NCBI RefSeq assembly: GCF_000276665.1 | Contig: NW_004955467.1 | Span: 1,391,397 to 1,455,396, forward strand | Source: Chinchilla lanigera | Taxonomy: Eukaryota; Chordata; Mammalia; Rodentia; Chinchillidae | Direction: 5' to 3' | Length of the DNA: 64,000 nt | In this document: one piece after another, positions 8,016 through 47,900 of the stretch | Numbering within the stretch: the stretch's first letter is position 1 | Layout of the letters: every line of letters starts with the position of its first letter | The notes under the pieces: generated by a model | The model's database searches: none | What the model was told of the DNA's origin: nothing | The model's input: the letters and a program-made list of their open reading frames with translations, nothing else | Position numbers and translations under genes: made by a program

Positions 8016-9384
8016 TAACTGTAAAAGCACATATTTTTTTAAACTGTAGTAAAACTATAGTAGCATTTAAAGACAATACAAATATGAGCAGCTGTTTTGA
8101 GGATGATGATACGCAGTGTGCTAACCATTGTTATGCTCTTATAATCTTGTTTTGAAATTTTATACCATTAGTTTTATTGTTTATTTTTCTTTTCAGTAAA
8201 ATAAAATTTAAAAAATACAAATCCAGAAAGATAATTCAGCTATCATTTTTGATGTATATTCTGTAGTGTCTAGAATTAAAATAATCATACATGTTCTGTG
8301 TGAAAAATAACAGAAAAAAATCATGTTCTGTGATACTTTTTGGTTTATCTTGAATAGTTTTCATCTTTAAGTATTTTCAGAGAATATGAATTTTAGTAGC
8401 TGCACAGTATTCCAAGTCTTCTCAGATTTGTTAAAAATCATTTATCTACGTGGACTTGTTTGTACTTGAAGGGTTATTATGGAGATTTATCTCATTCTTT
8501 TCATTTTAACTGTCTTGTTTCATCATAATTTATCTCAGAATTGTAAATATTAGCTATTTGATAAGTTTTTGCTCAGTATTTAAAAAAATTTTGAGTGCGC
8601 ATAGTAATTTTTTGTCTTAGTATTTTCTTTTAGTAAAGAAACATAGTGTCTTTACATGGGAGATTTTGTTGGTGTCATGTTTTATTTTTCCAGTTGTATT
8701 TATCCATAAATTAATAGACTTTACATTTACAAAAATAATTTTCATGCACATTGTTTCCTTGAATATAAATTTGTGAGACGTCTAAAACTACTCCTACCTT
8801 GATTTTTAAGAGATGATTAGTACTGACATTTTATATATGACTAAACAAGAGCAAGTAACTTTAGATTTCTGCTGAAAGACAAACTTCATTTTTTTCACTT
8901 TATCCTCTGATGTTATCCCAGCAGTTATCTTCACCCACAGCTGCATTTGATTTTAAACTGCCTTCAATAATTGGTCGGTTTTATTTAATAACATATCTTT
9001 AAATTGTGTGCCATTTCTAACCTTTCTGAACGTTTAGAAGCTGTGGAGAGGGTTTGCTGTGAGTTACAGCTTTGCTGGTCAACCCGGCTGGGCCTCTTCA
9101 GTTGGGCGTCTGCTCATTTAGTTACATGAGATCCAAGGCAACCTGTCTGTAGTCCTTCAATGAACATTTACTTTTTGCTGAGTTGTTGGCCTTATGTCCA
9201 TTTTACACTGTATATTATCTTCTCCACATTATTTGGGTTATTTTTCAGAAGCCTTTACTTATGTAAGTTGACACTGGTTACTAGTCTCTAGATCTTTCTT
9301 CAGTTGTTTTTACATGGTGGTAGGTGTTCTGAGTTTATTCCTTTTCAGATATTGTGTGGCTCGTTCTGTAATGTTAATTCTGTA

Positions 9385-9475
9385 ACTAGGCATGAGGACA
9401 CAGCAACGAATTTTGTTTACAATGAGTGTGGCATTTCAGGCATCTCTCAACACTGTTTTCCTTTGTTACCTGTGG
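9385..9475 (-). repeat. Left arm of 91-nt inverted duplication
   Basis: Its reverse complement matches 10089-10179 over 91 nt without gaps, with six mismatches by my alignment (about 93 percent). It holds an antisense copy of the TTC19 exon A end and donor. It lies in the intron 464 nt upstream of the exon. Confidence 0.95.
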
Positions 9476-9939
9476 GTTGAGAGATGCTATATTGCTCCAG
9501 CCTTTATTAATCTTCTTGAAAACTGTATTAACTGTTCTTTAAATTTGGTTTGAGGCTTTCCATTCAGAGTTTGACAATTCTCTCCTTTCTTACTGCTTTT
9601 CACCTTTTTCACTGACCCTAGACTTTCGTTGTTAATTCTTCCTCCTTGGGTTTATGTTCGTCTGTTTCTTTTGATAAACTACTAGTTTCAGTTTTCATAG
9701 CTCTTTAGAACGTTAATCTACCTAAAACATGTGTGGGGAGTTCCATGATTTCAGCTAGTCCAGCATGACATTTAATTGGATCTTAAACCACCAGAATTTA
9801 AATTGCCTTCTTTCAATATAATGTGACAGGAAACATTTGTGGCTCCTTGTAACCCAAATGATGAGTAGGTTGGCTAACTCTTACATGCCTTCTGTAACAC
9901 ACTTGTTACATCCCCACAATGTTCTTATTTCCTTCTTAG

Positions 9940-10094
9940 TGGAAGAAAAAGCCAATACCCACCTTCTCCTGGGCATGTGCTTAGACTCTTGTGCACGATA
10001 CCTTCTGTTCTCCAAACAGCCATCCCAGGCACAAAGGATGTATGAAAAAGCTCTGCAGATTTCTGAAGAAATACAAGGAGAAAGACATCCACAG
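9940..10094 (+). CDS. TTC19: TTC19 exon A (third from last coding exon)
   Basis: The exon follows the acceptor tttccttcttag and starts with TG, completing a Val codon begun in the previous exon. It reads VEEKANTHLLLGMCLDSCARYL then the TPR segment SKQPSQAQRMYEKALQISEE and ends HPQ at CAG|gtaaca. The donor has a weak +5 position. The last six bases and the donor are also part of a 91-nt inverted duplication whose other arm lies 613 nt upstream. Confidence 0.95.
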
Positions 10095-12460
10095 GTAACA
10101 AAGGAAAACAGTGCTGAGAAGTGCCTGAAATGCCATACTCATTGTAAACAAAATTCGTTGATGTGTCCTCAAGCCTAGTCCACTCAGCTTGTGACTACCA
10201 ATCCATCTGTACTCAATTATGTGTTTCAGAAAGGACTTGAGATTGCTGAGTAGTTAGTAAGTCTGCCCAGAATGCATTGCATGGCTTATGGTTTGAACGA
10301 GAGACCATACTTTCTATGAGGCAGATCTAACCAGGCAACTTGTGCTTCTTTATCTCTAGTTTTAATGTATAGAGCCTGTGCTGAACAGACTCTGCAGACA
10401 TTCCATTAGAATCTTGTAACAGTCAAGTTAATACATGAGTTTCCTTGCCTCCCTTGTTCCACAGTTTAAAAAAGGATTAAGGAAAAGAGGGACTGCATTA
10501 CTTTTTTTTTAATGAGAGAGGGTTTTGCTACATAGTTCAGGCTGGCCTTGAACTTGCAGGGATCCTCCTGCCTCAGCCTCCCGAGTGCCAGGATTACAAG
10601 TGTGTGTCACCATGCCTGGCTGGCATTAAGTTTTAAAACACTGGGAGCCGGGGATATAGCTCAGTGGCACAGTGCCTGCCTGGCAAGCACGAGGCCGAGT
10701 TCAATTCCCGGTACCAGAAAAAAAAATTAAAAACATTTACGTAGTGTTACAGAATTTAAGCACAACATGCAAAACTTTGTGTTAGAACTCTAAATGCACT
10801 GAATTGAAATCTGACTGTTCTATCAAAGTAATTCTTAGAGGTAAGGAGGAGATTGCTTTGTCAGCGAATGCTTTCAGCTGCAGCATAAAACAGACTTTAA
10901 CTGCACTGAACGTGAAATGTTTGGAAGATAATTTGAGCTATGAATTAACTCCAGGAAAGGAATTTTGAACATTTTACTGAGTGAGCTCTAAGGGGACTTT
11001 CATGAAGTTAAGATGGCAAGCACAGAATTCAGATTACCAAGTATTAGAATCAGATGTCCAAAAGCATATCTTCAGTGGAGGGTAAAGTATAGAAGCTTGT
11101 CTCTTTCTCAGTACTAAAATTTTAAATACTCATAATGAGACTCCTCCTAAAATAGATGTTTCTTTTTATTTTGATGAGCTTCAAGATCCCTAGCAGGAAC
11201 GGCATTATAATGTTCTAGAGACAAACAGATGCTAGGAGGCTGGCTTCTCAAAATTGCTGAACCTTGTGTTGGATTTTTTTTTTTTTTAAGAGTAGCAAGT
11301 ATTTATTGAGAGAAAGAAAGCGTTGCCTAAGAGGGACAGAAGGGGGTCCCTCGTGGTTGGTCCCAGGACCATGGTTGGTCCTGCTTCTCAAGAGTTTTGT
11401 AGAGTGAAACCATGAGGTGAGGGGCATGAAACAGGACAAAACTATAGTTAACTAATAAGATTACAAGTGTAATCCTTAGATAATATTGATCCAATGGAAA
11501 ATCACAAGGTAGGTATGAAGTGGGACAAAATTATGGTCAACCAATAAGATTAAAAATAAAAAATAAAACTATAGTTGTTTAGGTAATATTGATTAGATGG
11601 GGATCTAATGGAGAAGTCACCTAGCAAGTGCACATGGGACAAACAAGGATTATCCTGGAAGGGGTGGGTTAAGAAGGTTTTGGTCTTACACCCAAGGTGA
11701 TTGATGTCTATTTTATTTTATTTTTTGTCTTTTGAGACAGGGCTTCACTATGCAGTTCAGGTTGGCCTTGAACTCACTTTGTTGCCCAGGTTGGCGTTGG
11801 CAGCTATCCTCCTGCCTCAGCCTCTAGTGCTGGGACTACAGGCATGATATCTATTTAGAATATAAATAACTGCCATTCACTCCTAAGGGAAGTATGTGGG
11901 TGTAGTCATTCCTTTGTCCTGAGGCCTGACCTTCAACAAATGCACCTCCAGCCTCAACTGTCTTCTGCCGTGACCTCTTGAGGGCCAACCCTGTCTGACT
12001 ACCTGTATTTCTAAATAACTTAGCTGTCTTTAATACTAGTAATATAGGGGAAATGCTAGGTGTCTGATACTCCGAGTTCATGATCCCTGACTTCAAAGAC
12101 TGAATTCTAAGGAACCATCGAGGCTAAGAGTAGGAACATTTATTGGGAAAAGGAATACAGAATAGGAATAGCTCCTGAATGGGCTGCCCTTCAGTCAGAT
12201 AGCTTTTTTCCCTTATTTTTCACTTAGTGCTTCTGTGATAATTATTTGAATTAATAATACTCACCCTAACCCTAATTACTGCATTTGTATCATTTGTCAG
12301 AGTTGAACTAATACGCTCCACTATACTGAATGAATGATAAGTGCCTGCAGGTTGTTCAAGGCTAGCATCTCTCACTTTTTGTGGAATGTTAGGAAAGATG
12401 AAATTGTGTATACTCTTAGTTTAACAAATGTCAGATTAGCATTTTGTGTAGGTGTGTTTT

Positions 12461-12491
<31 letters not shown>

Positions 12492-13618
12492 CCGGTACCG
12501 GGAACCGAACTCACGACCTTGCACTTGCCAGGCAGGCGCTTTTTGCCGCTGAGCTAAATCCCCAGCCCCTGTGTAGGTGTGTTTTTAAGGAAAAAGCTAG
12601 TTTCTGTTTTCTGTGTACAGACAATTGTGCTGATGAGTGACCTGGCTACTACATTGGATGCACAGGGGCACTTTGATGAGGCCTATGTTTATATGCAAAG
12701 GGCATCGGATCTAGCAAGACAGATAAATCATCCTGAGCTGCACATGGTACTCAGTAATCTTGCTGCAATTTTGATACATAGAGGTAAGTAGCAAAGGAAA
12801 CTTGACTGGCTTGCTTTACAAAGGGATATTACTGAGTCTATAAATTAGTGAAAAGGTGTTTAGGGAGGGCAAGGGGCAATGAGGAGATTCCTAACCTAAA
12901 AAAGCTGGTTGAAGAAGGGGAGAAACATCATGTTAAGGTCAAGTACCATTTTTCTTAATCACGTAACATGTGTCTGCACTGGCCTGAGGAACTGTATAGT
13001 TTACAGAAAACTTGGCAATGATAGTATCTTATCTTTATGACAGATTCCTACATGTTCTCACTTTGCAATCTGTTTCTCACACTATGCTGGTGAAGCTGCA
13101 GTGACAGGGAGGATCAGTTTAACAGGTGTTTCTGAGGGTCATCACTCAGTATACTGCTTAGGGCTTCACTTGTCATTTTCAGTAACCTTAGAGGACAGCT
13201 ATTACATGGAAGGCCATTGTGAAGTCCTTGGCTGATTGAGGGCCCCAGTGTATATTAAAAAATGCAGTGAGGAATCCTACAACACTCAATAATTTGTAGT
13301 TCTTAGACCCGGGTCAGATCTGACAGCCTAAGGCAGCTTGCTAAATAGGTCTGAAATGAAGCAGGATCAGTCTGTCAGGTAGTGTGCACACAGGAAATTA
13401 GACCTGTATCCCCATTAGTACTATCTCTTTATAGTCACTTTGAAAATGCACATTTTCTTCTTCTTTTTCTTTGGGTTATTTTAGAACGATATACACAAGC
13501 AAAGGAGATCTACCAGGAAGCACTGAAGCAAGCAGAGCTGAAAAGAGATGAGGTTTCTGTACAGCACATCAGGGAAGAATTGGCTGACCTGTTGAGAAAA
13601 AGTAGATCTTTGACTTAA
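9940..13618 (+). CDS. TTC19: TTC19, last three coding exons (C-terminal TPR part)
   Basis: TTC19 is a tetratricopeptide-repeat protein of the mitochondrial inner membrane that supports complex III (cytochrome bc1), helping to clear Rieske-protein fragments (established knowledge). Joined exons 9940-10094, 12621-12783 and 13485-13618 give 452 nt in one frame, about 150 residues. Recognisable pieces are VEEKANTHLLLGMCLDS, QAQRMYEKALQISEE, SDLATTLDAQGHFDEAY and RYTQAKEIYQEALKQAE, forming three TPR-like helix pairs. All junctions are GT-AG and phases agree. The mitochondrial targeting sequence and first TPRs are not in the window; none of the earlier exons was found in 1-9939. The gene converges on NCOR1, as in human. 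The C-terminus is five residues short because of a one-base shift at the end of the last exon. Confidence 0.96.
10089..10179 (+). repeat. Right arm of 91-nt inverted duplication, spanning a 5' splice site
   Basis: This arm begins with the last six bases of TTC19 exon A (CCACAG) and continues 85 nt into the intron, ending GCCTAGT. In the transcript it could pair with 9385-9475 around a 613-nt loop. Confidence 0.95.
10510..10727. repeat. B1 (reverse) followed by ID (forward)
   Basis: B1 at about 10510-10622 in reverse; ID at about 10645-10727 forward, GAGCCGGGGATATAGCTCAG to CAATTCCCGGTACC. Both lie in the intron between TTC19 exons A and B. Confidence 0.88.
11272..12150 (-). mobile_element. 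Possible LTR-derived retrotransposed segment
   Basis: On the - strand the segment starts near CCCAATAAATGTTCCTACTC and ends CAATAAATACTTGCTACTCTT followed by a poly(A) run. Two similar AATAAA blocks at both ends resemble the R regions of an LTR transcript. Inside are two imperfect copies of an about 90-nt segment (around 11425-11500 and 11515-11600). A B1 interrupts it at about 11722-11848. No gag, pol or env reading frame was seen. The family was not identified. Confidence 0.35.
11722..11848 (-). repeat. B1 SINE
   Basis: GAGACAGGGCTTCACTATGC to CTGGGACTACAGGCATG, reverse orientation. Confidence 0.88.
12445..12585 (-). repeat. Young ID SINE with target-site duplication next to TTC19 exon B
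   Basis: Reverse ID with a long T tract, body close to consensus, ending CCCCAGCCCC. The 16-nt sequence TGTGTAGGTGTGTTTT flanks it at 12445-12460 and 12570-12585. Exon B starts at 12621, 35 nt further on. Confidence 0.93.
12621..12783 (+). CDS. TTC19: TTC19 exon B (second from last coding exon)
   Basis: The exon starts on a codon boundary after ctgtgtacag (ACA ATT GTG, TIV) and ends CAT AGA G|gtaagt, a strong donor. It reads SDLATTLDAQGHFDEAYVYM, then QRASDLARQINHPELHMVL and SNLAAILIHR, one full TPR plus the first helix of the next. A young ID SINE ends 35 nt upstream of the acceptor, counted from its duplicated target site. Confidence 0.96.
13485..13618 (+). CDS. TTC19: TTC19 last coding exon, with shortened C-terminus
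   Basis: The exon follows ggttattttag and starts AA, completing the Glu codon (G|AA). It encodes RYTQAKEIYQEALKQAE then LKRDEVSVQHIREELADL and stops after RSLT with TAA at 13616-13618. In human the chain continues NSVKL. Omitting one T, the next codons read AAC TTT ATC AAG CTC TGA (NFIKL stop, 13617-13634), so a one-base insertion explains the early stop. Confidence 0.94.
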
Positions 13619-18072: not shown

Positions 18073-21000
18073 CTGACAAAAGAAAAAGGTTTTCAGTATT
18101 AGAAGCACATTTGCTATTTCATCTAATCTAACCATTACCAGATGGGATAGCACAAGATTATTAAACTGAAGTATTAGTGTGACACGACAAAAACGAAATT
18201 AATACAACGTAGAAGGGCTAAGTTTTCACCATTATGCAACAATCAGTCCAAGTCTACACAGGACAAATAACATTGAATAAGCAAATGGGAAAGGGCTGCT
18301 GAGCCCAGAAGAGAAAAGCCCAGAGCTGGACTAAATGCAGCTGTGGAGTAGTGAGCAGTAACTGAAAGTCTGGTTACACTGAGATCCTCCTTGGCTTCAC
18401 ACAAGAAATGCAGGAGTACAATTTTCAGAAGATGAGGTGGCAAGTGCCCAGCAACTTCTGCAGACCAGGAGGCAGCAAGGTGTGTGTGAGCTACAGAACC
18501 TCCCTGAATAGATCCGGAAGTGGGACACATAAAGTGAAAAGAGCGCTGCTTCCTTTTGTGGATTTCTGTAAGTTAAATTATCCCCAGAACATCTCCTATA
18601 GTTTCAAAAACTAAAACCATTTTATCAAGTAATCTTCTGTGTGGTCTTACAGTAATTCCTTTACTAAGATATCTGAGAAGCAGCAATATTCATTTAAGTC
18701 ATACATTTTCAAAATAATATAAAATTTAAGGGAAAAGCCTTAAACTATTAGTATACTATTATATGAAATTTTTATATTATTATTATTTATTAGTTGGTTT
18801 TTTTGAGACAGGGCCTCACTATGTAGCTCAAGCTGGCCTTGAACTAAGTAACCTAGGCTGGCCTCAAACTCAGGGAGATCTTCCTGCCTCAGCCTCCTGA
18901 GGGCTGGGATTATAGGCATGTGCCACCATGCCCAGCTTGTTTTTATGTTTTATGGGAGAGGGGACAGTTCAGGTTTCTCTTTTATGTGTGTGACATGTAT
19001 GTGTATTTAACCTGCTGCTAAGAAAAGGAGGGCATAAAATTCTCTGAAACCTTGAAATTCACAGCACATACCCTAGTTTTATTTAAAAAAAAAGATTGTT
19101 CTCTTTTAAATCTACCAGTATCAGTTGTAACATTACAAAAAGGCATAAAATGGAAAACATAAGCTACACAGTGAGACCCTGTCTCAAAAAAACCAAATAA
19201 TAATAATATAAAAACTTCATATAATAACACCAATACAGTTTAAGGCTTTTCCCTTAAATTTTACATTATTTTGAAAATGTATGACTTAAATGAATATTGC
19301 TGCTTCTCCGATATCTTATTAAGAAAAGGAGGGCATAAAATTCTCTGAAACCTTGAAATTCACAGCGCCATATCCTAGTTTTATTTTAAAAAAAGATTGT
19401 TCCTTTTTAACTCTTCCAGTATCACAGTTACAACTTTACAAAAAGGCATAAAATGGAAAACATTTTGAACCCACAGATGATTTTTTAAAACTCTTCTATT
19501 TCTGACTTTGATTTTTTTGGTGTCTTTTTAAGAGCTTTCCCTAAGAATATCCGTATGAAAGGTAAAGGTGCTACTCATGAAAGAACTGAAACCATAGACT
19601 GTTGGCTTTGCAAATAGGAAATGTTGGCTAACAACAAGCATAAATCCAGAAATAGACTGGGTAAGACTTTTTCATAGCTCTTTGTTAGACCTTGGATTAA
19701 AAGTTGAGATTATATGCATTCAATTTCTATTCTGCAAAGTAGAATCTATTAATAAATGATACACAAATGGGAATATGCGTTTCCAGACTATAAACATTAT
19801 TGATGGTTTGAGGAGTGATAACAAAGTATTCATATGCATTGCTTTAAGTTGCATTTCCTACGAGGTAAACCCAGCTCCTCACCTGTAGAAGAGGGCCTGT
19901 CCTCCCAGGCCCACCCTGGTGTCTGCCTGTGGTAATCCCCTTCTGAGTGGACGGAGGAGACAGAGGAGGGTCGCTCAGCTCCCAGGTAGCCCTGCCCAGG
20001 AATGGGGGACTTAGACTTCCTGTTGCTGGACTTGCTGATGAGCTTTGGTTTGCAGACGCCTCCTAAAAAATCAAGTTAAACTACGCTAAGTGAAAAAGTC
20101 GGAATGATAGCATGAAGACTCCAGATCCTAGTAGCTGATGAAATAATACTATTTAAAAGCCAAAATTTCACTTCCAACAACCAAAGCAAAAGGATGCATC
20201 TTCATGCCATAAACTAAAAACTCTGGCAACTGAGGAAACAGAGTTCCTGAAACAGAAGCTTCTTTACTGGCTGGCACAGAAGCTGTGCTAAAGGAAAAAA
20301 AAAAAAGGCTGACAAAATCTTACATCCTTACTGCCTACCTACTTCCCTGTGCCCTGTTCCCCCAATTCAGGGTAAGCAAGCAGGGGAATTAATACACTGT
20401 ATTAGCAGGGCATCAGCACAGACTCAGCAAGTCTTTGTGGCCCTTTGTATTTCTGTGATGCTCATAGGTATCCCAGACTAGGCTCTGGGATAAAACATTA
20501 AAGATCTCAGACAAGATGAGAGCCCAGATCCCCAGCACAGCTTCTCCTCAGCCCGAGCAGAACAGTATCAGCATATCGCACAACCAGTGTCATTGTAATA
20601 TCATTGCAGTTCTGTAACAGTCACCAAGATTACAGCCTAAACACACACTTAGACCCATAAAAGTAAGAAATTAAGAGCAAGGAGGGGAAAATAATGCTTG
20701 TTTTGTAGAATACAAAGTAAATTGACAGTTTCCAAGTTACATGTAGATTTTTTTAAAAAGCAACTTCTAATCTCATTTTACATAACCACAGTGAGATGAA
20801 GATAGCAAAGGAAAGTAACCCTAAAACAAAATATTGCTGACCTTCAGGTAATTTTAAGTAGAAAATATACTAGTTCTTAAAAGATTAAGAAAAAAGTCAT
20901 ATATAAAAAGTTTTTTGTATGTTTTTGTTGTAAGAAGTTAAAATGATCAGACTCTGATCTTTGTTTCTGACCTGTCTGAAATGTTGCTTATCCCACAGCA

Positions 21001-24000: not shown

Positions 24001-27000
24001 TAATGTTTTCTTCATTCACAATGCATCTTAACATGTAATGTTTTCTAAACCGTGTCATAGCCACCTGGGTAGCTTGGTAAACATGCAGAATTTCTGCATT
24101 CCTGGAGCCTTGTAGTTCATACACTTTAGGCACTCAAGTGACGATGACAAATGTACATTATTGAGGGCCCTTGTTTAACAAAGAGTGTGGTGTGTACAAA
24201 AGCACTGAAGAGGTGGAGAGCACTGCTGTGCAGGGTAAACGAGAAAGCTGCTGAACTGAAGATGACGTTCACAATGTCGGCCTGGTCGACACAGTTACAT
24301 GTCCTTTTGTGAATGGTTTGCCATGCTCTTAGTTTTTGTTTGGGAAAGGAATAGTTAAAGCTAGTTAGTGGAAGTGTCAGAAATACCAAATAATGTTGGT
24401 TCGATCTGCTTTTATTAGTGGTCATTTTAGAAGATGTGCATTTAACATAGACTTTTTAAAAATTGCAGTTAAAATACTTATGTAGCTTAAAAAATGTGAT
24501 GTTACTCAGAATAAAGGGGAAAGAAAGGTAGACATGTGAGAGCTGGTTAGGAGGCAGATTTGACAGAGGAAGCTAATAAAGTAATGTGTAAAAGGAACAG
24601 GAAGGGAGGAAGCAAGAACTTTCTGTGTGGGGAGGTGGAATATAAATTCAACCGTGCAGACATTTGTGGAGCCAGTCAGCTATTCAAGAACAAAGGAGGT
24701 CTGCAGTCATACATTCCAATTTAGTAGGAAGAGCTGGCACCTAGACAGAAATGTGAGTTTTCAGCATGAAAGTGACAGTTTAAGACTCCCACATGGATAA
24801 AATGACTCAGAAGGGAAAGGGCAGAGAAGAGAGCCCTGGAAAAAACAAGGGCTAAGCAAAGCAAGACTAAGCTTCTAAGACTGAAGAAATGCCCAAAGAG
24901 GAAGACAGGAAAAAACTCAAAACAAAAAACCACAGGAGAATGCAGCATCTAAAAGAGAAAAAAGTGCTGTATTTCTGAAAAAGGAAAAGGACTCGTGTCA
25001 GAAGCTACAGAGATCACATAGCTTTTCATGTAGTACAGTTTTAAATGAATATACTTATCAACTGAATTGAGAGACAGTTTTCTGAAGAAAAACTATCTTG
25101 GTTGCTCATGGCTTTGATCTCTTAGTTCAGTTTCCCAGTGAGGACTAGTGCTCTGGGCTCCGAGGAGCTTACTAGTTCTTTAATACAAACTTCCCATTCC
25201 ACAAGTGAAATTATTAAAAAATACTAGACTCTAAAGCAGTTGTGTTCTAATATACTCTATCTTCCCTTAAAATAGGTAGTTTTTTCATTGTACATTTAGA
25301 GAGCAGACACCATCTCTCAGCGTAGTCAGTGATCGTTGAGTCAGCTGCTGTGAAGGGCAAGACAGAAACTGAAGAGGATGAGTGTAAACCACACCATGCT
25401 CAAACAGTTCCTGACAACTGCTTTTGCTCTGTATATTTCCAGACATTGACAAATTTATCTTTGAGTCATGAGAATTTGAAAATGAAGGCACTGTATTCTT
25501 ATTGGTGACATTTGAGGAGCTGTAAACAATACATGAAATTGTTGAAGATTGGAGACAAGAAACCCCTAATGGTAATTTTTTTTTTTTTTTTTAAAGGACA
25601 TCTGTCTGCTTGAAATCAATTCGGATACTCTAGAATACTTATCTCTGAGATCATCTGTTTACCACTTCTCTGAGATGACTTGTCGTTTAGAAAGATGATT
25701 TTAGTAGTTAAGAGCTAAACAGGTTCACAAACAAGTGACCCAACCTCACCCTTTTCTCTTTGATGTTCAACAATTGTTAATCACAAAGCGACAGAAATCC
25801 AAATACACATCCACCTGGCATTTCTTGTTTTGACAGGATCATTAGACAAGTATATGACACATTAAACAGAAAAAGCAGATGGAGGCAGACCTACGTTATC
25901 ACTGGGATGTAACTGGATGGGGGGGGTCATACAAGTGAGTGTGCTGTTAACAGTACAAGAAGGTTCTGGGGAATGTGTGCACATTAATCTAAATGCAAGG
26001 TTCTAACAGAGCTTTACTAGATATTTACCAGTAATGTAGGTAACGATGCTTTGAGTACCGAATTGTTAGAAGGCAGCCTGGGTTTGCACCATAGCCCCTT
26101 TACTTACTAGTTGTGTAACCCGTGCTAGTTATTAAGCCTCTCTGAGTCTCAGTTTCCTCATCTACAAAACGGAGACAATTGAATGTAGCATATACGGTTG
26201 TGAGGATAAATGAATGTACATATGTATACATTTAGAACACAGTAAATGCCGGTTAATCTTTCCCTACTATTGTTGATATTATTTGTGTTGCAGATGAATG
26301 CTGAACAACTAAACCGATCTAGACAGACCCTGGCAGAAAAAGTAGTTGGAATGGAATAAGTACATATTGTCTTGTCCTGTCCTTGGGACTAGTAATTGCA
26401 AAAGCAGAGGGAGAGGTATGGTTTAAGAGTAACGCTATCAGGAGACCTTAGCCATAACTTGAGTGTGCAGGTTGGCAACAAAAAAAGCTAATAAAATCTC
26501 AGGGTAGCTTAAAATAATGACACATTTAGGATATGCCTGACTGTGTCACACTATTTAGTATTACTTGGTGTATAACAGTTGGCATAGCTGGGGTACAAAG
26601 AACCAGGATGTGAGGAACCACTGATGAAATGGGATATTTACAGAGACAAGAAGACTCTGACACACACTTTCTCAAATGTGTGAAATGATATCACGTGGAG
26701 AGGATCCAAACAGATAAAATTAATGGGATCAAAAAGAAAAAACTACAGACAGTTAAGCCAAGCTCATATAATAATGGACAGCTTCAAAGAGGAGCAGTAG
26801 GACTACTCAGTAGGACTACTCTTTGTGAACTGGCAGACAGTTGGGGAGCAACTTAGAAACAGCTTATGGTGATGCTTTCTGCTTAACATCTTTTTTTGAA
26901 AAGATGAGGCATCACTATGTAGTTCAGACTAGCTTCAAATTAATGGCAATCCTCCTTCCTCAGCCTCCTCGATGTTGGGATTATAAGGTGTGTACCATCA

Positions 27001-30000
27001 TGCCTGCCAATATGAACTATTTTGATTACCACTCCAGCAGAATTAAAAAATTACTTCAGTATACCAAAGTTACAACTAATAGCATACTTGCCTATGAAAC
27101 AGATTAGATGTATTGGATAAATGCATTACAGAGCTTTCACCCTCAAAGATTACAGGAGAGGCAAGAATGGTGACACTAATTCATGTTTCATTTGGGGTTC
27201 ATGAAAGAAATCCCACTTACCCATATCAGAGTCACCTCCACCAGAGGAGTTCAACTTACGAAAAATCTCCTGCTTCTTTGATTTAACCATGGGTGATGTG
27301 TTTTCAAGCTTGGTGAAGAACGAAGGCAAGTAGCTTATACTCCCTGGTGAGCGGGAATCATTCCTGTCAGGAACACAGTTCAGTCTATTACACTCATGTA
27401 CCAAGAACATTCCAATTGATGATGATGACAGTAACAGAATACTTGGAAAAACTATTGCTTCTCAATCTGGTGTTTGTGGGTACAACCTTTAGAAAAACCA
27501 TACTACCGTAATCCAGTTAGTATGTCATTTAAGGTCACAGTCAAGTAACTTTAGCCCTCAAAGATGATACCATAAAGTAAGATTAAAATAGCAGTAATCT
27601 AGAATAGAGATTCTTAAGGAATGAACAGGCAGCAAATGAATATAATTGGAAGACTCAGAAACAGCTTATCATCATGTTTTCTGAAAGCTTCACATCTTTT
27701 TTTAAAAGATGAGGTCTCACTATGTAGTTCAGACTATCTTCAAACTCATGGCAATCCTCCTTCCTCAGCCGCCTCAATATTGGGATTATAAGGTGTGTGC
27801 CATCATGCCTGCCAACATGAACTATTTTGATTACCACTCCAGCAGAATTAAAAAATTACTTCAGTATACCAGAGTTACAACTAATAGCATACTTGCCCAT
27901 AAAACAGGAAACACTCCTACCTAAACAATTCGTTTGTTACAGTCATTTCAAGCCAGTTATCAAGAAAGCTATGTTTAATACAAAAGATTTTATATTTCAT
28001 TGGTACCTTCCAATATTAATGTATTTTTTAACACGGAAACAATTTAATATAAACCGGACACACTTAAAAATCTCCTTTTAGTGAGGCATCATTTCTCTTA
28101 TGTATGATCTCCAAAGCAGTTTTGTATCAAAGTACAGCATGACCAATTTCAGGAATAGTTCTTCACTTTGGAAATTATGTGAAATGACAAAAGAAAGCCA
28201 TGATTAAAATGATGCTCATGGGGGAGAGGAAGAATAGTACAGAAGAGACTACAGAGAAATGCTACAGGTGCAGGGAGCGAGGGAGGACCGCATGAACGTG
28301 GGCCGGCTGCGCTTGCCGGTGATGAAACATTTGTGAAAAACTGGACAAAAGAAAGTTCCTTTTAATTAAATGAGTGATCATGTTCCTATTTGTTAGGATT
28401 GCTTTAGTTATCATTTAAAATTATTATTGTATTACTATATCTCAGGTCTTCCCAATTTCTATTGTTTATTTTTTAAAAGTCTTGGTATGTTTTATATATA
28501 GTACCTAGATATACGAATGGGGCACATTAAAGAAGATTAGCACCTCCAAAAAAGTTGTAGCAAAAGGTTTAGCTGTTTGAAGAGTATTTTCTTTTCATAG
28601 CTTAAAGATTCGAATGCTACTGGTAATTAAAAAAAAAAATTCTTAGAATGTATTTGTGTAGGCTTAGATGCAAAGAACATTTTAAAATTTTATGATGACA
28701 GCGTTTGTTTTTCTGTATGAGAAAACAGCCAGAAAGGTCACTCGGGGCACACCTTGCCTGTCCGATAGTAAACGGGTGTGAGGTACTGTTCTCACTGGAG
28801 CCTTACTGTGTACCACCCGTGGCTACCTCCTCTGGGTACAAGCCCAGCTCTCAGCAGGACATGCTCTAAAGGCCTGGTAAGTAATGAGACAGAAGCCTGC
28901 ATTCACTGAGTGGGGTGACATAATCCCATGTGTTATGCCTAAGTCTGTTTTAGTTTCTCCTGCTAGTCAAGTAGAAAAATCTGTTAACCCCTCAGCCCGC
29001 ACGTTATCAGGTCGCTTTCTCTTGAACTAGAAGAGTCGAATAATAAAGTTAATCTAAGTAACTTTACATATATCTCTAGAAGCAAGCTGCTTCATTGTCT
29101 TCTCATCCGTCTTAGATCTTGAGACAGAACCCTACAACCTGAAAGCTGATCTGGAGACCAGTCAGTCTCAGCCTCAGAGAGGCTTTGCAGTGTGGCAGTG
29201 TGTAGTTATCCCTGCCCTGCTGCTGAGTCTCTGTTCACTGCTCATTGTCTCTGGCCATTTACTTTTTAAAAACAAGTTTACCCTACAGCTCAAGGCAGCC
29301 GAAGATCTAGCTAGAGCTAAGGTAGTAACAGAGAATGTATGAAAGGCTGCTGATAACCTAATCTGGTCATGTGGATTCACACACAAAATATTATTTGCCA
29401 AGAAAGAGAAGTGCGCTGATAGAAAAATGAGTTAAGACAAAGTCCCTGGCCTCAAAAAATTCAGGTACTCAAGGGAAATCATGTAAATAATTATATTTAA
29501 TATTTCCTCTCCAAAAATAAATTTCCTTCATTTCATTGAGGATAGCAAAATTATTTGATACCAACATTATTTGGCTACTTATAAGTATATATACTAAAAT
29601 AATTCTATATTCTAAGAAATGAACCAACAGTATTGAGTTAAACTTCAGACTATCCTATCAGTCTGACCAGAGGCAAATCACATATTCATCTCTCAGTCCT
29701 GGGGATCCTGATTAGATACCAAGAAACAGAACACAAAGGAATTCAGAGAGCACAGAATACAGCATTATGGTTAAATAATAGGAAACAGAACTGCGTAAAG
29801 CTTGTCCTGGAACTCAGATGTTGACCAGTCACCTAGTGCTTCGGCTGAAGTGAGTTTTAGACTACCACTGTGGAAATATGGCGAGTGAATGAATGCAAGG
29901 GGACAAACAAATGTCAGAAAGAGATAATACATAAAACAGTTAGATCTAATAAGCCAGTACTTGTGTTGGCTCAGTCAAGGTATGACTCTGCAGGCCTCTC

Positions 30001-44900: not shown

Positions 44901-47900
44901 GCTCTGGCTGCTTTGCTGTTCCACTGCCATTCTCTTTGCTCTTGTTGCTTTGCTATCTTCTGCCTCGGAGCCAGCCAAGCATGGACTGAAACCTCCACAA
45001 ACTGTAAGCTAAATAAACCTTTCCTTCCTTCATTTTGGGCTTTGGGTGTTTTGTCTCAGCAAGGAGAGAAAAGTAACCAAGACAACTGTGTAATACCTTT
45101 CCACCTGCAGGGTAATTGTTTCTCCAAACTAGAGCCGAAAGGTTTGGTCTCATCCTCCTACCCACAAGCAAGTACTTTTCTCCCTCCTTCTCTTGTGTTG
45201 CTCCTCTCTACCCCAAACTGTTCATCTGTACCTCTCTATCCACCCAGGAGTATGCATATGAGGCCTCAATAAATACCTGTGTCAATCAAATTAAAAAAGA
45301 ACTGAATGTGTATTTGAGAGCCTCATGGCCACCTGGTTAAAAAAATCAGTGACTCTTCCCTTAGTGACACAGCTGCCAGCATCACGAGATTATGATTAAA
45401 ACAGTAAGAGGAGTGTACATTTATCAAGTTCTCTGTACATACTAGCCACTATCCTAAGTTCTTCAAATGTCCTACCTCGTTTTATCTTGGTTTTTTTGTT
45501 TTTTTTTTTTGTTGTTGTTTTGTTTTTCTCCGGTACCGGGAACCGAACTCACGACCTTGCACTTGCCAGGCAGGCGCTTTTGCCGCTGAGCTAAGTCCCC
45601 AGCCCCTACCTCGTTTTATCTTCATCAGAGTGCAGGCAGCTCTCGGTAGTACATTACCGTTTTATGGATGAGAAAACCAAGGCACAGAAAATTTAACTTG
45701 TCTAAGCTCATACAGTACAAACTTTAATTCCAACCTAAGCAGTCTTGTTCCAGAGCCGAACTTCCAACCATCAGACTACGCTCCCACTAAAGACCAACAA
45801 AACAGATACTAAAGACCTAAAGCAACATGCTGAAAAACCCACTCTAAATACACTCTGGAAAACTTCAGAGCTTCATCAGACCCAGACTTATTTAAATGCT
45901 GGTGCCTTATGTAAAATTATGCCTATTTTAAACCAGTAGCTTTCTATAGCCCTAGTATAAGCAGAACCTATATATCTAATAATAGCGTAAAGCTGATAGT
46001 ATGGAATTTCTTATTTGCCAGAGGTAAAAAACTAGTAAAAATGACTGGATGAGGTAAAGAAATAACATACCATCGGACGTTCTGCTCATCATGGGAGAGC
46101 CTCTGGACATGGTATTCTGGTAACTCACAGGGGTCCTCCGAGCACTGCTGTCATCATAAATTCCTGGGCTCAGCTGTGCTTTGGGTGCTTCATGAAGAGT
46201 GGACCTGAGGACAGAGGGGCCAGAGCTCACCACCGATGTGTGCCGTGAACGTACTGGCTCGCCTGCTTTCACATCCTCGTATTTTCCCCTTTCCACCACT
46301 TTTATGCTCTCTGGTACAATTTCCAGTGGAGGCATTCCACGGGGTAGTTTGCTGGGCCCCGTTATTAAGGATTTGACATTGTGTTTGATAGCAGATTGAC
46401 CTGAGTTGCTGTCAAACTTTATTGGTGTGCCCTAAAGGGAAAAAAAAGCAAACATTATACATAATCACATCATCTGGATATTGTTCTGTCTTGGGTCTAC
46501 TTTTGGGCTATGGCAGTTATACTGTGCCATAGTGACCTTTACAGTCTGTGTGGCTGTTTCAGGGACCTTGAGTTCTTCCTCAAATTATTTACTCCATGCA
46601 TACTATAGATTAAAAAAAGAACAAAAAAGCAAAACCAAAAACTGATGACAGAGAATACATAAAATTTTCATGTTTACTTCCAACAGGTCTGACACAGTAA
46701 GACATACTTTTGGCTATTAAGTCACACTTTTAAAATGTTTCATAATTGTCTCTCTGAAGTGGAACTGATGACAAAAAGAGCCATGATCTAGTTACCTGGG
46801 AAATAGAACCCTCAATTATTGGCCTCGTGCTCTGGACCACTTCTGGAGTTTTTCGGCTTTCCTGAGTTAGAATATCTTGCCGTGGAATCTCATGAATGGA
46901 ACGTCCCATTTCTTTGATGGTAGTGATGCCATCATATGGTTTTCCTTTGGTAATGGCACCTTCAAAGGCTCGAATGGGAGGGCTTTCCCTTTTAATCTGT
47001 TTGGGATACTTAAGGCCATCTTCAAAGCTTTCAGTTGTTGCCCTTGGTGTGCCTTCAAATAGAATTCAGGAAACATATTTATTAAAATAATGCTGATAGC
47101 TGTACAACACCACTACTGAATTATACTGATAATTAAAATTGGACCCATATCTTTCACCATGCACTAAAGTAAATTTGAAATGGATCAAAGATCTAAATAT
47201 TAAAACAGAAACAAATCTGTTGAACGACAGAATAGATAAAACTCTTGAAGACACTGGGATAGGCAAAGACTTTAAAAAGCTTTCTGCACAGCAAGAGAAA
47301 CCACCAACAGAATAAAGAGACAACCCACAATGTGGGAAAAAATGTTTGCCAGCTGTTCCTCAGACAAACGATTACTATCGAGAACATATAAAGGAAAAAA
47401 AAAATCAGACCTCCCAAATTCAAAGACCCAATCGAAAAATGGTCAACTGAGATGATGCCCACACTTCTCAGATGAAGAAATACAAACAGCAAATAAGTAT
47501 ATGAAAGAATGTTCAACATCACTGGTCATTTAAGAGATGCAGATTTTAAAAACACCCCAGAAAGAATAGCTGTTATTAAGAAATCAGCAAATAACAAATG
47601 CTGGAGGGCTGTTGGGAAAAAAGAAAGCTTCTCCACTGTTGGTGGGAGTGTAGACTGTGCAACCCACTGTGGAAATGAGTCTGGAGGTTACTCAAAACAC
47701 TAAGATTGCAGGTCCTATTTGATCTAGCTATTCCCCGTCTGGTATCTTCCCAGAAGAATTAAAAACACAGTATCACAGCGATATATGTCCACTCATGTTT
47801 ATAGCAGCACAATTTGTAATAGCTAGATCTTGGTAACTATCCAAATGCCTATCAACTGAGGAACAAATAAAAAAGATATGGTCTTTTCATACAATGGAGT

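What the first reader, a model, noticed from the sequence alone, without database searches (positions are those of the whole stretch)
9385..10179. Inverted duplication hides a TTC19 5' splice site
Arms 9385-9475 and 10089-10179 are reverse complements over 91 nt with six mismatches and no gap. The right arm begins with the last six bases of TTC19 exon A and covers its donor (CAG|gtaaca, already weak). In the transcript the arms could fold around a 613-nt loop containing the exon and cover the donor. Neither arm is a SINE I know, so a local template switch is the likely origin. It could lower use of the exon, favour its circularisation, or attract RNA editing.
Basis: partly seen in the sequence, partly recalled or inferred. 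Interest (0 to 1): 0.75.

Follow-up and report, generated by a model that had tools for sequence, protein, structure and literature searches.

The report
Inverted copy of a TTC19 splice donor
In this rodent-like genome a 91-base stretch covering the end of one TTC19 exon appears to have been copied backwards into the preceding intron, so the transcript could in principle fold over its own splice site; this is a real but probably ordinary copying accident whose effect on splicing has not been measured.

Summary
Arms 9385-9475 and 10089-10179 are reverse complements over 91 nt with six mismatches, no gap and a 613-nt spacer, far beyond chance. The 155-nt TTC19 exon (9940-10094) lies in the loop; its donor is in the loop-side end of the stem. 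The left arm is probably the copy, since the right arm carries coding bases. Within the window each arm matches only the other. Local replicative template switching is the likely origin. Three of the six mismatches complete a perfect 12-nt hairpin between the left arm and its flank, as a second small switch would. The window holds another such event (18661-19463) with clearer compound anatomy. Equilibrium folding buries the donor (P unpaired 0.001; 0.18-0.50 in 12 left-arm shuffles). That is a prediction only: U1 timing, helicases and the need for the exon (skipping gives a stop after six codons) make mostly normal inclusion likelier. Circularisation is not specially favoured, because the donor is in the stem. 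No related mammalian genome, reads or RNA data could be reached, so direction, age, splicing and editing are untested.

The parts
9385..9475 (-). Left arm: inverted copy (probable daughter) of the exon end and intron start, in the upstream intron
   Evidence: 85/91 reverse-complement identity to 10089-10179; no other match in the window at E 1e-5; the next best, 39 nt at 77%, has E 0.049
9440..9451 (+). Stem half of a local hairpin inside the left arm; holds 3 of the 6 arm mismatches
   Evidence: exact reverse complement of 9476-9487; 9430-9495 folds at -21.7 kcal/mol
9476..9487 (+). Other stem half, just outside the left arm; probable template of the mismatch cluster or junction filler
   Evidence: 12/12 complementary to 9440-9451, but 9/12 to what the right arm predicts there
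9940..10094 (+). TTC19 exon, 155 nt (enters in phase 1, leaves in phase 0), in the loop between the arms
   Evidence: tblastn match to recalled TTC19, 51 of 53 residues (the last aligned codon is already intronic), with AG/GT borders
10089..10179 (+). Right arm (probable source): last 6 exon bases plus 85 intron bases, including the donor
   Evidence: begins with the codons CCA CAG (Pro Gln) of the exon
10092..10100 (+). Splice donor CAG|GTAACA, in the loop-proximal end of the predicted stem
   Evidence: mean P(unpaired) 0.001 native; 0.175-0.496 in 12 of 12 left-arm shuffles
12621..12783 (+). Next TTC19 exon (163 nt); skipping of the 155-nt exon would give D N C A D E then stop at its start
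13485..13618 (+). Coding part of the last TTC19 exon, to its stop TAA (13616-13618)
   Evidence: sequence

Best explanation
A 91-nt piece spanning the 3' end of a TTC19 exon and the start of the next intron was copied in inverted orientation about 0.6 kb upstream by a local replication template switch, giving a new intronic arm. A second, short template switch then matched part of the copy to its neighbouring flank (or left a templated filler at the junction), which accounts for three of the six differences. In the pre-mRNA the arms can form an 87-pair duplex over 91 nt that encloses the exon and covers its donor. Because U1 can bind as the donor emerges and nuclear helicases resolve such duplexes (both recalled), I expect the exon still to be mostly included, with at most a slight to moderate rise in skipping (degraded as an NMD substrate), intron retention or A-to-I editing. 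Shown: the sequence anatomy and the equilibrium fold. Inferred: direction of copying, mutational mechanism, and every effect in the cell.
For: Anatomy: 85/91 ungapped; null maximum 35.6 bits in 200 shuffles. At E 1e-5 every arm base has exactly one partner in the window. The right arm contains the coding end of the exon, so it is the likelier source. Hairpin: 12/12 between 9440-9451 and 9476-9487; 3 of 6 mismatches fall there (P 0.028, a stretch picked after seeing it); random 14-nt flanks against the arm as the right arm predicts it reach 9/12 or more in 256 of 2000 and 12/12 in 2 of 2000. The window has a second partly unique-sequence event: inverted copy 18661-18828/19162-19322 between direct copies 19019-19160/19320-19463, a layout that serial template switching can make. 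Great-ape work reports inverted templated insertions of median 12 and up to 128 nt, enriched in introns (PMC7954356, section 8 part 1 and passages). Folding: arm duplex -151.2 kcal/mol; donor P(unpaired) 0.001 native against 0.175-0.496 in 12 left-arm shuffles.
Against: No orthologous locus was available, so the direction and even the recency of the copy are not proven. PMC7954356 looked for templates only within about 100 nt, so a 613-nt spacer is outside what that survey tested. No flanking direct copy marks this event as it does the second one (flanks 9350-9384 and 9476-9560 have no strong match). The equilibrium fold predicts nearly total masking (from transcript end 10104 on), which taken at face value contradicts mostly normal inclusion; I set it aside on kinetic grounds that I did not measure. 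With pair span limited to 600 nt or less, masking vanishes, but nothing shows that such a limit applies.
Confidence: 0.66

Rival explanations
1. The inverted copy has become a working splicing switch: the duplex hides the donor and lowers inclusion of the TTC19 exon, adjusted by ADAR editing or helicase level.
For: Donor almost fully paired in the equilibrium fold once 10104 is transcribed; U1 pairing is moderate (-8.5) while freeing the donor-side 12 nt costs about 25 kcal/mol. In human genes, exons looped out by conserved pairings have lower inclusion and pairings over active splice sites are depleted (PMC8052449, passages). In mouse, a Ttc19 fragment named E018 changes with loss of Adar by qPCR: higher inclusion in liver, lower in bone marrow, no change in cortex (PMC7462079, passage).
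Against: No RNA data for this genome. The mouse fragment was not located on the gene, did not follow the predicted trend in bone marrow, and whether mouse carries the left arm is unknown. Skipping destroys the reading frame, so strong masking would be harmful.
Confidence: 0.16
2. The pairing is old and conserved among mammals; the arms are kept alike by selection or by arm homogenisation.
For: Arm homogenisation by template switching is a described process (PMC8604942, start of abstract in search listing only), so 6 of 91 differences need not mean youth. The mouse Adar result would fit.
Against: Four of the six differences break pairing and two leave G-U, so there is no sign of compensatory change within this one sequence. 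Not testable further here without orthologues.
Confidence: 0.08
3. The arms are two insertions, or the terminal repeats, of an unrecognised mobile element.
For: Genome-wide copy number could not be tested (genome search did not complete).
Against: The stretch between the arms holds a TTC19 exon and one arm holds its coding end; no other copy in 64 kb at E 1e-5.
Confidence: 0.05
4. Assembly or library artefact (chimeric inverted read).
For: Inverted chimeras are a known library artefact (recalled).
Against: A fresh chimera would be nearly identical; the arms differ at 6 of 91 sites, three of them in a structured cluster.
Confidence: 0.05

Closest known systems
Short-range template-switch mutations (inverted templated insertions), great apes, PMC7954356 (section 8 part 1 and passages seen)
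   Same: Local reverse-complement copy, in an intron, length within the reported range (max 128 nt)
   Different: 91 nt is far above the median of 12; the 613-nt spacer exceeds the about 100-nt search range of that study; no ancestor sequence here to test it
Template switching that perfects hairpins, PMC8794818 (abstract, outline and passages seen)
   Same: A mismatch cluster in the left arm turns a 9/12 chance quasi-palindrome into a 12/12 stem
   Different: Intronic, not an RNA gene; the direction of change is inferred from the other arm only
Long-range intronic pairings that loop out exons, PMC8052449 (abstract and passages seen)
   Same: Complementary stretches flank an exon; that study also allowed pairing regions to reach 10 nt into exons so as to overlap splice sites
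   Different: Those were chosen for conservation among vertebrates; conservation here is unknown
GRIA2 R/G and FLNA/FLNB editing sites next to a 5' splice site (named in a passage of PMC7462079)
   Same: Double strand next to a donor (that those sites lie in exon-intron duplexes is recalled)
   Different: No editing shown here; the partner strand lies upstream of the exon

Membership tests
Local template-switch (inverted templated) duplication | Reverse-complement copy of nearby unique sequence | tested here: met
   85/91, unique within the 64-kb window at E 1e-5; genome not searched
Local template-switch (inverted templated) duplication | Copy absent from the ancestor or close relatives | not testable with these tools
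   No collection of mammalian genomes answered or was offered; a try for contaminant sequence by exact patterns found 0 stretches in genome contigs and viral contigs
Local template-switch (inverted templated) duplication | Microhomology or templated filler at the junction | tested here: inconclusive
   12-nt complementary flank next to the arm may be filler or the template of a later correction; no target-site duplication seen by eye
SINE inverted pair | Arms match dispersed repeats | tested here: not met
   both arms have exactly one partner in the window, while 13 of the 15 inverted pairs listed within 5 kb lie in multi-copy repeats; genome not searched
Exon loop-out / splice-site-masking RNA structure | Stable predicted duplex covering the donor | tested here: met
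   (equilibrium model only; not met if pair span is capped at 600 nt or less)
Exon loop-out / splice-site-masking RNA structure | Measured lower exon inclusion, or evolutionary conservation of pairing | not testable with these tools
   no RNA data or orthologues
ADAR substrate | A-to-G changes in transcripts of the arms | not testable with these tools
   no RNA reads
circRNA-forming intron pair | Both arms intronic with both splice sites of the exon free in the loop (definition recalled) | tested here: not met
   right arm includes the donor and six exon bases

The most novel reading that the evidence does not exclude
A single template-switch mutation gave a mammalian gene an internal antisense of its own splice donor, turning a constitutive TTC19 exon into one whose inclusion depends on RNA unwinding and editing. 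The 12-nt hairpin holds the antisense in its loop and may delay masking just long enough for U1 to bind: with the transcript ending at 10100 the donor's P(unpaired) is 0.544, and 0.044 in 8 of 8 flank shuffles; from 10104 on this difference is gone.
Probability: 0.1. Interest if true: 0.75.

Novelty: new member of a known kind. Interest (0 to 1): 0.42.

Why it matters
If the fold forms in cells, one copying event is enough to place a splice donor in a long duplex, which would let one test how much double strand a needed exon tolerates and how helicases, ADAR and U1 timing rescue it. If it does nothing, it shows that very stable predicted pairing over a donor can be harmless. TTC19 loss causes mitochondrial complex III disease in people (recalled), so use of the exon is consequential.

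Tried and rejected
SINE pair: rejected within the window. Mobile element ends: rejected because of the exon between and the coding bases in one arm. Structured RNA family: Rfam at gathering threshold gave one match in the window, a tRNA-like element at 10650-10716, outside the arms; ARAGORN found no tRNA. Relatives by contaminant sequence: an exon pattern found 0 stretches in genome contigs and in viral contigs, a right-arm pattern 0 in viral contigs; these collections are not mammalian, so this says nothing about mammals. The flank hairpin as a lasting guard against masking: its effect is seen only at transcript end 10100 and is gone from 10104 (one scramble). Dating: 6/91 gives JC 0.069, 3/79 without the hairpin stretch 0.039; no age is claimed because species and rate are unknown and arms can homogenise.

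Papers: TTC19 with 'circular RNA' gave 2, with 'editing' and 'intron' 28, with 'exon skipping' 3. Of these I opened two, PMC7462079 and PMC12428622 (passages only; the latter just lists TTC19 among alternatively spliced genes); the others were not opened. From (8 papers) I opened PMC8794818 and PMC7954356; (3 papers) PMC8052449. From (24 papers, 12 listed; 3; 20 papers, 12 listed; 2) I opened none on their account.

Correction made on re-check: one search averaged donor accessibility over 10093-10101, one base off; one search repeats it over 10092-10100, with 12 new shuffles, and gives a wider range (0.175-0.496; one search had 0.393-0.665 in 5). The reading and the odds do not change.

Full report
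What was checked. In 200 dinucleotide shuffles of 9000-10600 the best inverted match scored at most 35.6 bits, against 138 here. The similarity ends sharply on both sides.

Gene context. A TTC19 protein recalled from memory matches three exons on the + strand: 9940-10094 (155 nt; 51 of 53 aligned residues), 12621-12783 (163 nt) and the coding part of the last exon, from 13485 to the stop at 13616-13618. The upstream exon was not found in the window by that search, so the intron holding the left arm is probably longer than 9.9 kb. A minus-strand reading frame at 45976-46335 looks like NCOR1, from memory. The species was not identified; repeats resembling rodent ID and B1 elements (names recalled) are common.

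Which arm is the copy. The right arm begins with CCACAG, the last two codons (Pro Gln) of the exon, and runs into the intron. The left arm lies inside the upstream intron. The simplest direction is right to left. This is inference, as no orthologue could be read.

Uniqueness. At E 1e-5 every base of both arms has exactly one partner in the window, the other arm; the next best match of the left arm is 39 nt at 77%, E 0.049. Of the 15 inverted pairs of at least 40 nt within 5 kb listed, 13 lie in multi-copy repeats; the two exceptions are this pair and 18661-18828/19162-19322. The copy number in the whole assembly is unknown, because the genome search did not answer in 8 tries.

A mutational signature. 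Positions 9440-9451 of the left arm are the exact reverse complement of 9476-9487, just outside it. The sequence that the right arm predicts there would match at 9 of 12. Three of the six arm mismatches (9443, 9444, 9450) are exactly those that complete the hairpin; three or more of six falling in that 12-nt stretch has a chance of 0.028, though the stretch was picked after seeing it. Random 14-nt flanks from the window, set against the arm as the right arm predicts it, reach 9 of 12 or more in 256 of 2000 draws and 12 of 12 in 2 of 2000. So a chance quasi-palindrome perfected by a small template switch is plausible. The alternative is that the flank is filler copied during the original event and the right arm changed later. 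PMC8794818 (abstract and passages) describes such perfecting of stems.

A second event of the same kind. At 18661-18828 a stretch of sequence otherwise unique in the window plus the start of a B1-like element is copied inverted at 19162-19322 (170 columns, 88.8%, 11 gap positions), and that inverted piece sits between direct copies 19019-19160 and 19320-19463 (145 columns, 90.3%). A duplication with an inverted insert at its junction is what serial template switching can produce (recalled). A direct duplication 26851-27102/27653-27907 (256 columns, 90.6%) is also present. So local duplications are not rare in this window. The TTC19 arm has no such flanking copies.

Predicted RNA effect. The arms alone form a duplex of 87 pairs and -151.2 kcal/mol. 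In the 9300-10260 transcript the donor (10092-10100) has mean P(unpaired) 0.001, against 0.175-0.496 in 12 left-arm shuffles and 0.487 when the transcript starts at 9489 (one search gave similar figures one base off). In growing transcripts from 9300 the donor is open (0.544) at end 10100 and closed (0.002) at 10104; one scrambled flank gives 0.044 and 0.001, one scrambled left arm 0.526 and 0.381; 8 of 8 flank shuffles give 0.044 at 10100. Limiting pair span to 600 nt or less leaves the donor at 0.41-0.45; at 700 or more it is 0.001. These are equilibrium values and ignore proteins and timing.

Why I do not conclude that the exon is lost. The donor is moderate, not very weak: -8.5 kcal/mol to U1, 81 of 3364 + strand GT sites (itself included) as good or better; the next TTC19 donor scores -12.3. 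It sits at the loop-side end of the stem, so only about 12 bp need be opened, at a modelled cost of about 25 kcal/mol. U1 may bind before pairing, and helicases such as DHX9 resolve long nuclear duplexes (both recalled). Skipping the exon gives D N C A D E and a stop early in the next exon, likely an NMD target, so strong masking would cost the animal its TTC19. Against this, human exons looped out by conserved pairings do show lower inclusion (PMC8052449, passages), and a mouse Ttc19 fragment responds to Adar loss in liver and bone marrow but not cortex, with a trend in bone marrow that the authors could not explain (PMC7462079, passage). Whether that fragment is this exon is unknown.

Circularisation. 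In the usual layout (recalled) both arms are intronic and both splice sites are free in the loop. Here the donor is in the stem, so pairing should hinder back-splicing as well.

Verdict. A real local inverted duplication of a known mutational kind, unusual in that it covers a splice donor, with an unmeasured and probably mild effect.

Noticed in passing
18661-18828, 19019-19160, 19162-19322, 19320-19463: Compound rearrangement: an inverted copy of locally unique sequence plus B1-like start inserted between two direct copies of a 142-nt stretch; looks like serial template switching.
   Followed up: partly
26851-27102 and 27653-27907: Direct duplication, 256 columns at 90.6%, about 60% of its bases with no other match in the window.
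   Followed up: partly
10095-10178: The exon's reading frame stays open through nearly the whole intronic right arm and stops (TAG) at 10176-10178, so intron retention would add 27 residues.
   Followed up: no
10650-10716: tRNA-like element that just passes the Rfam tRNA threshold (29.6 against 29 bits); ARAGORN does not call it.
   Followed up: no
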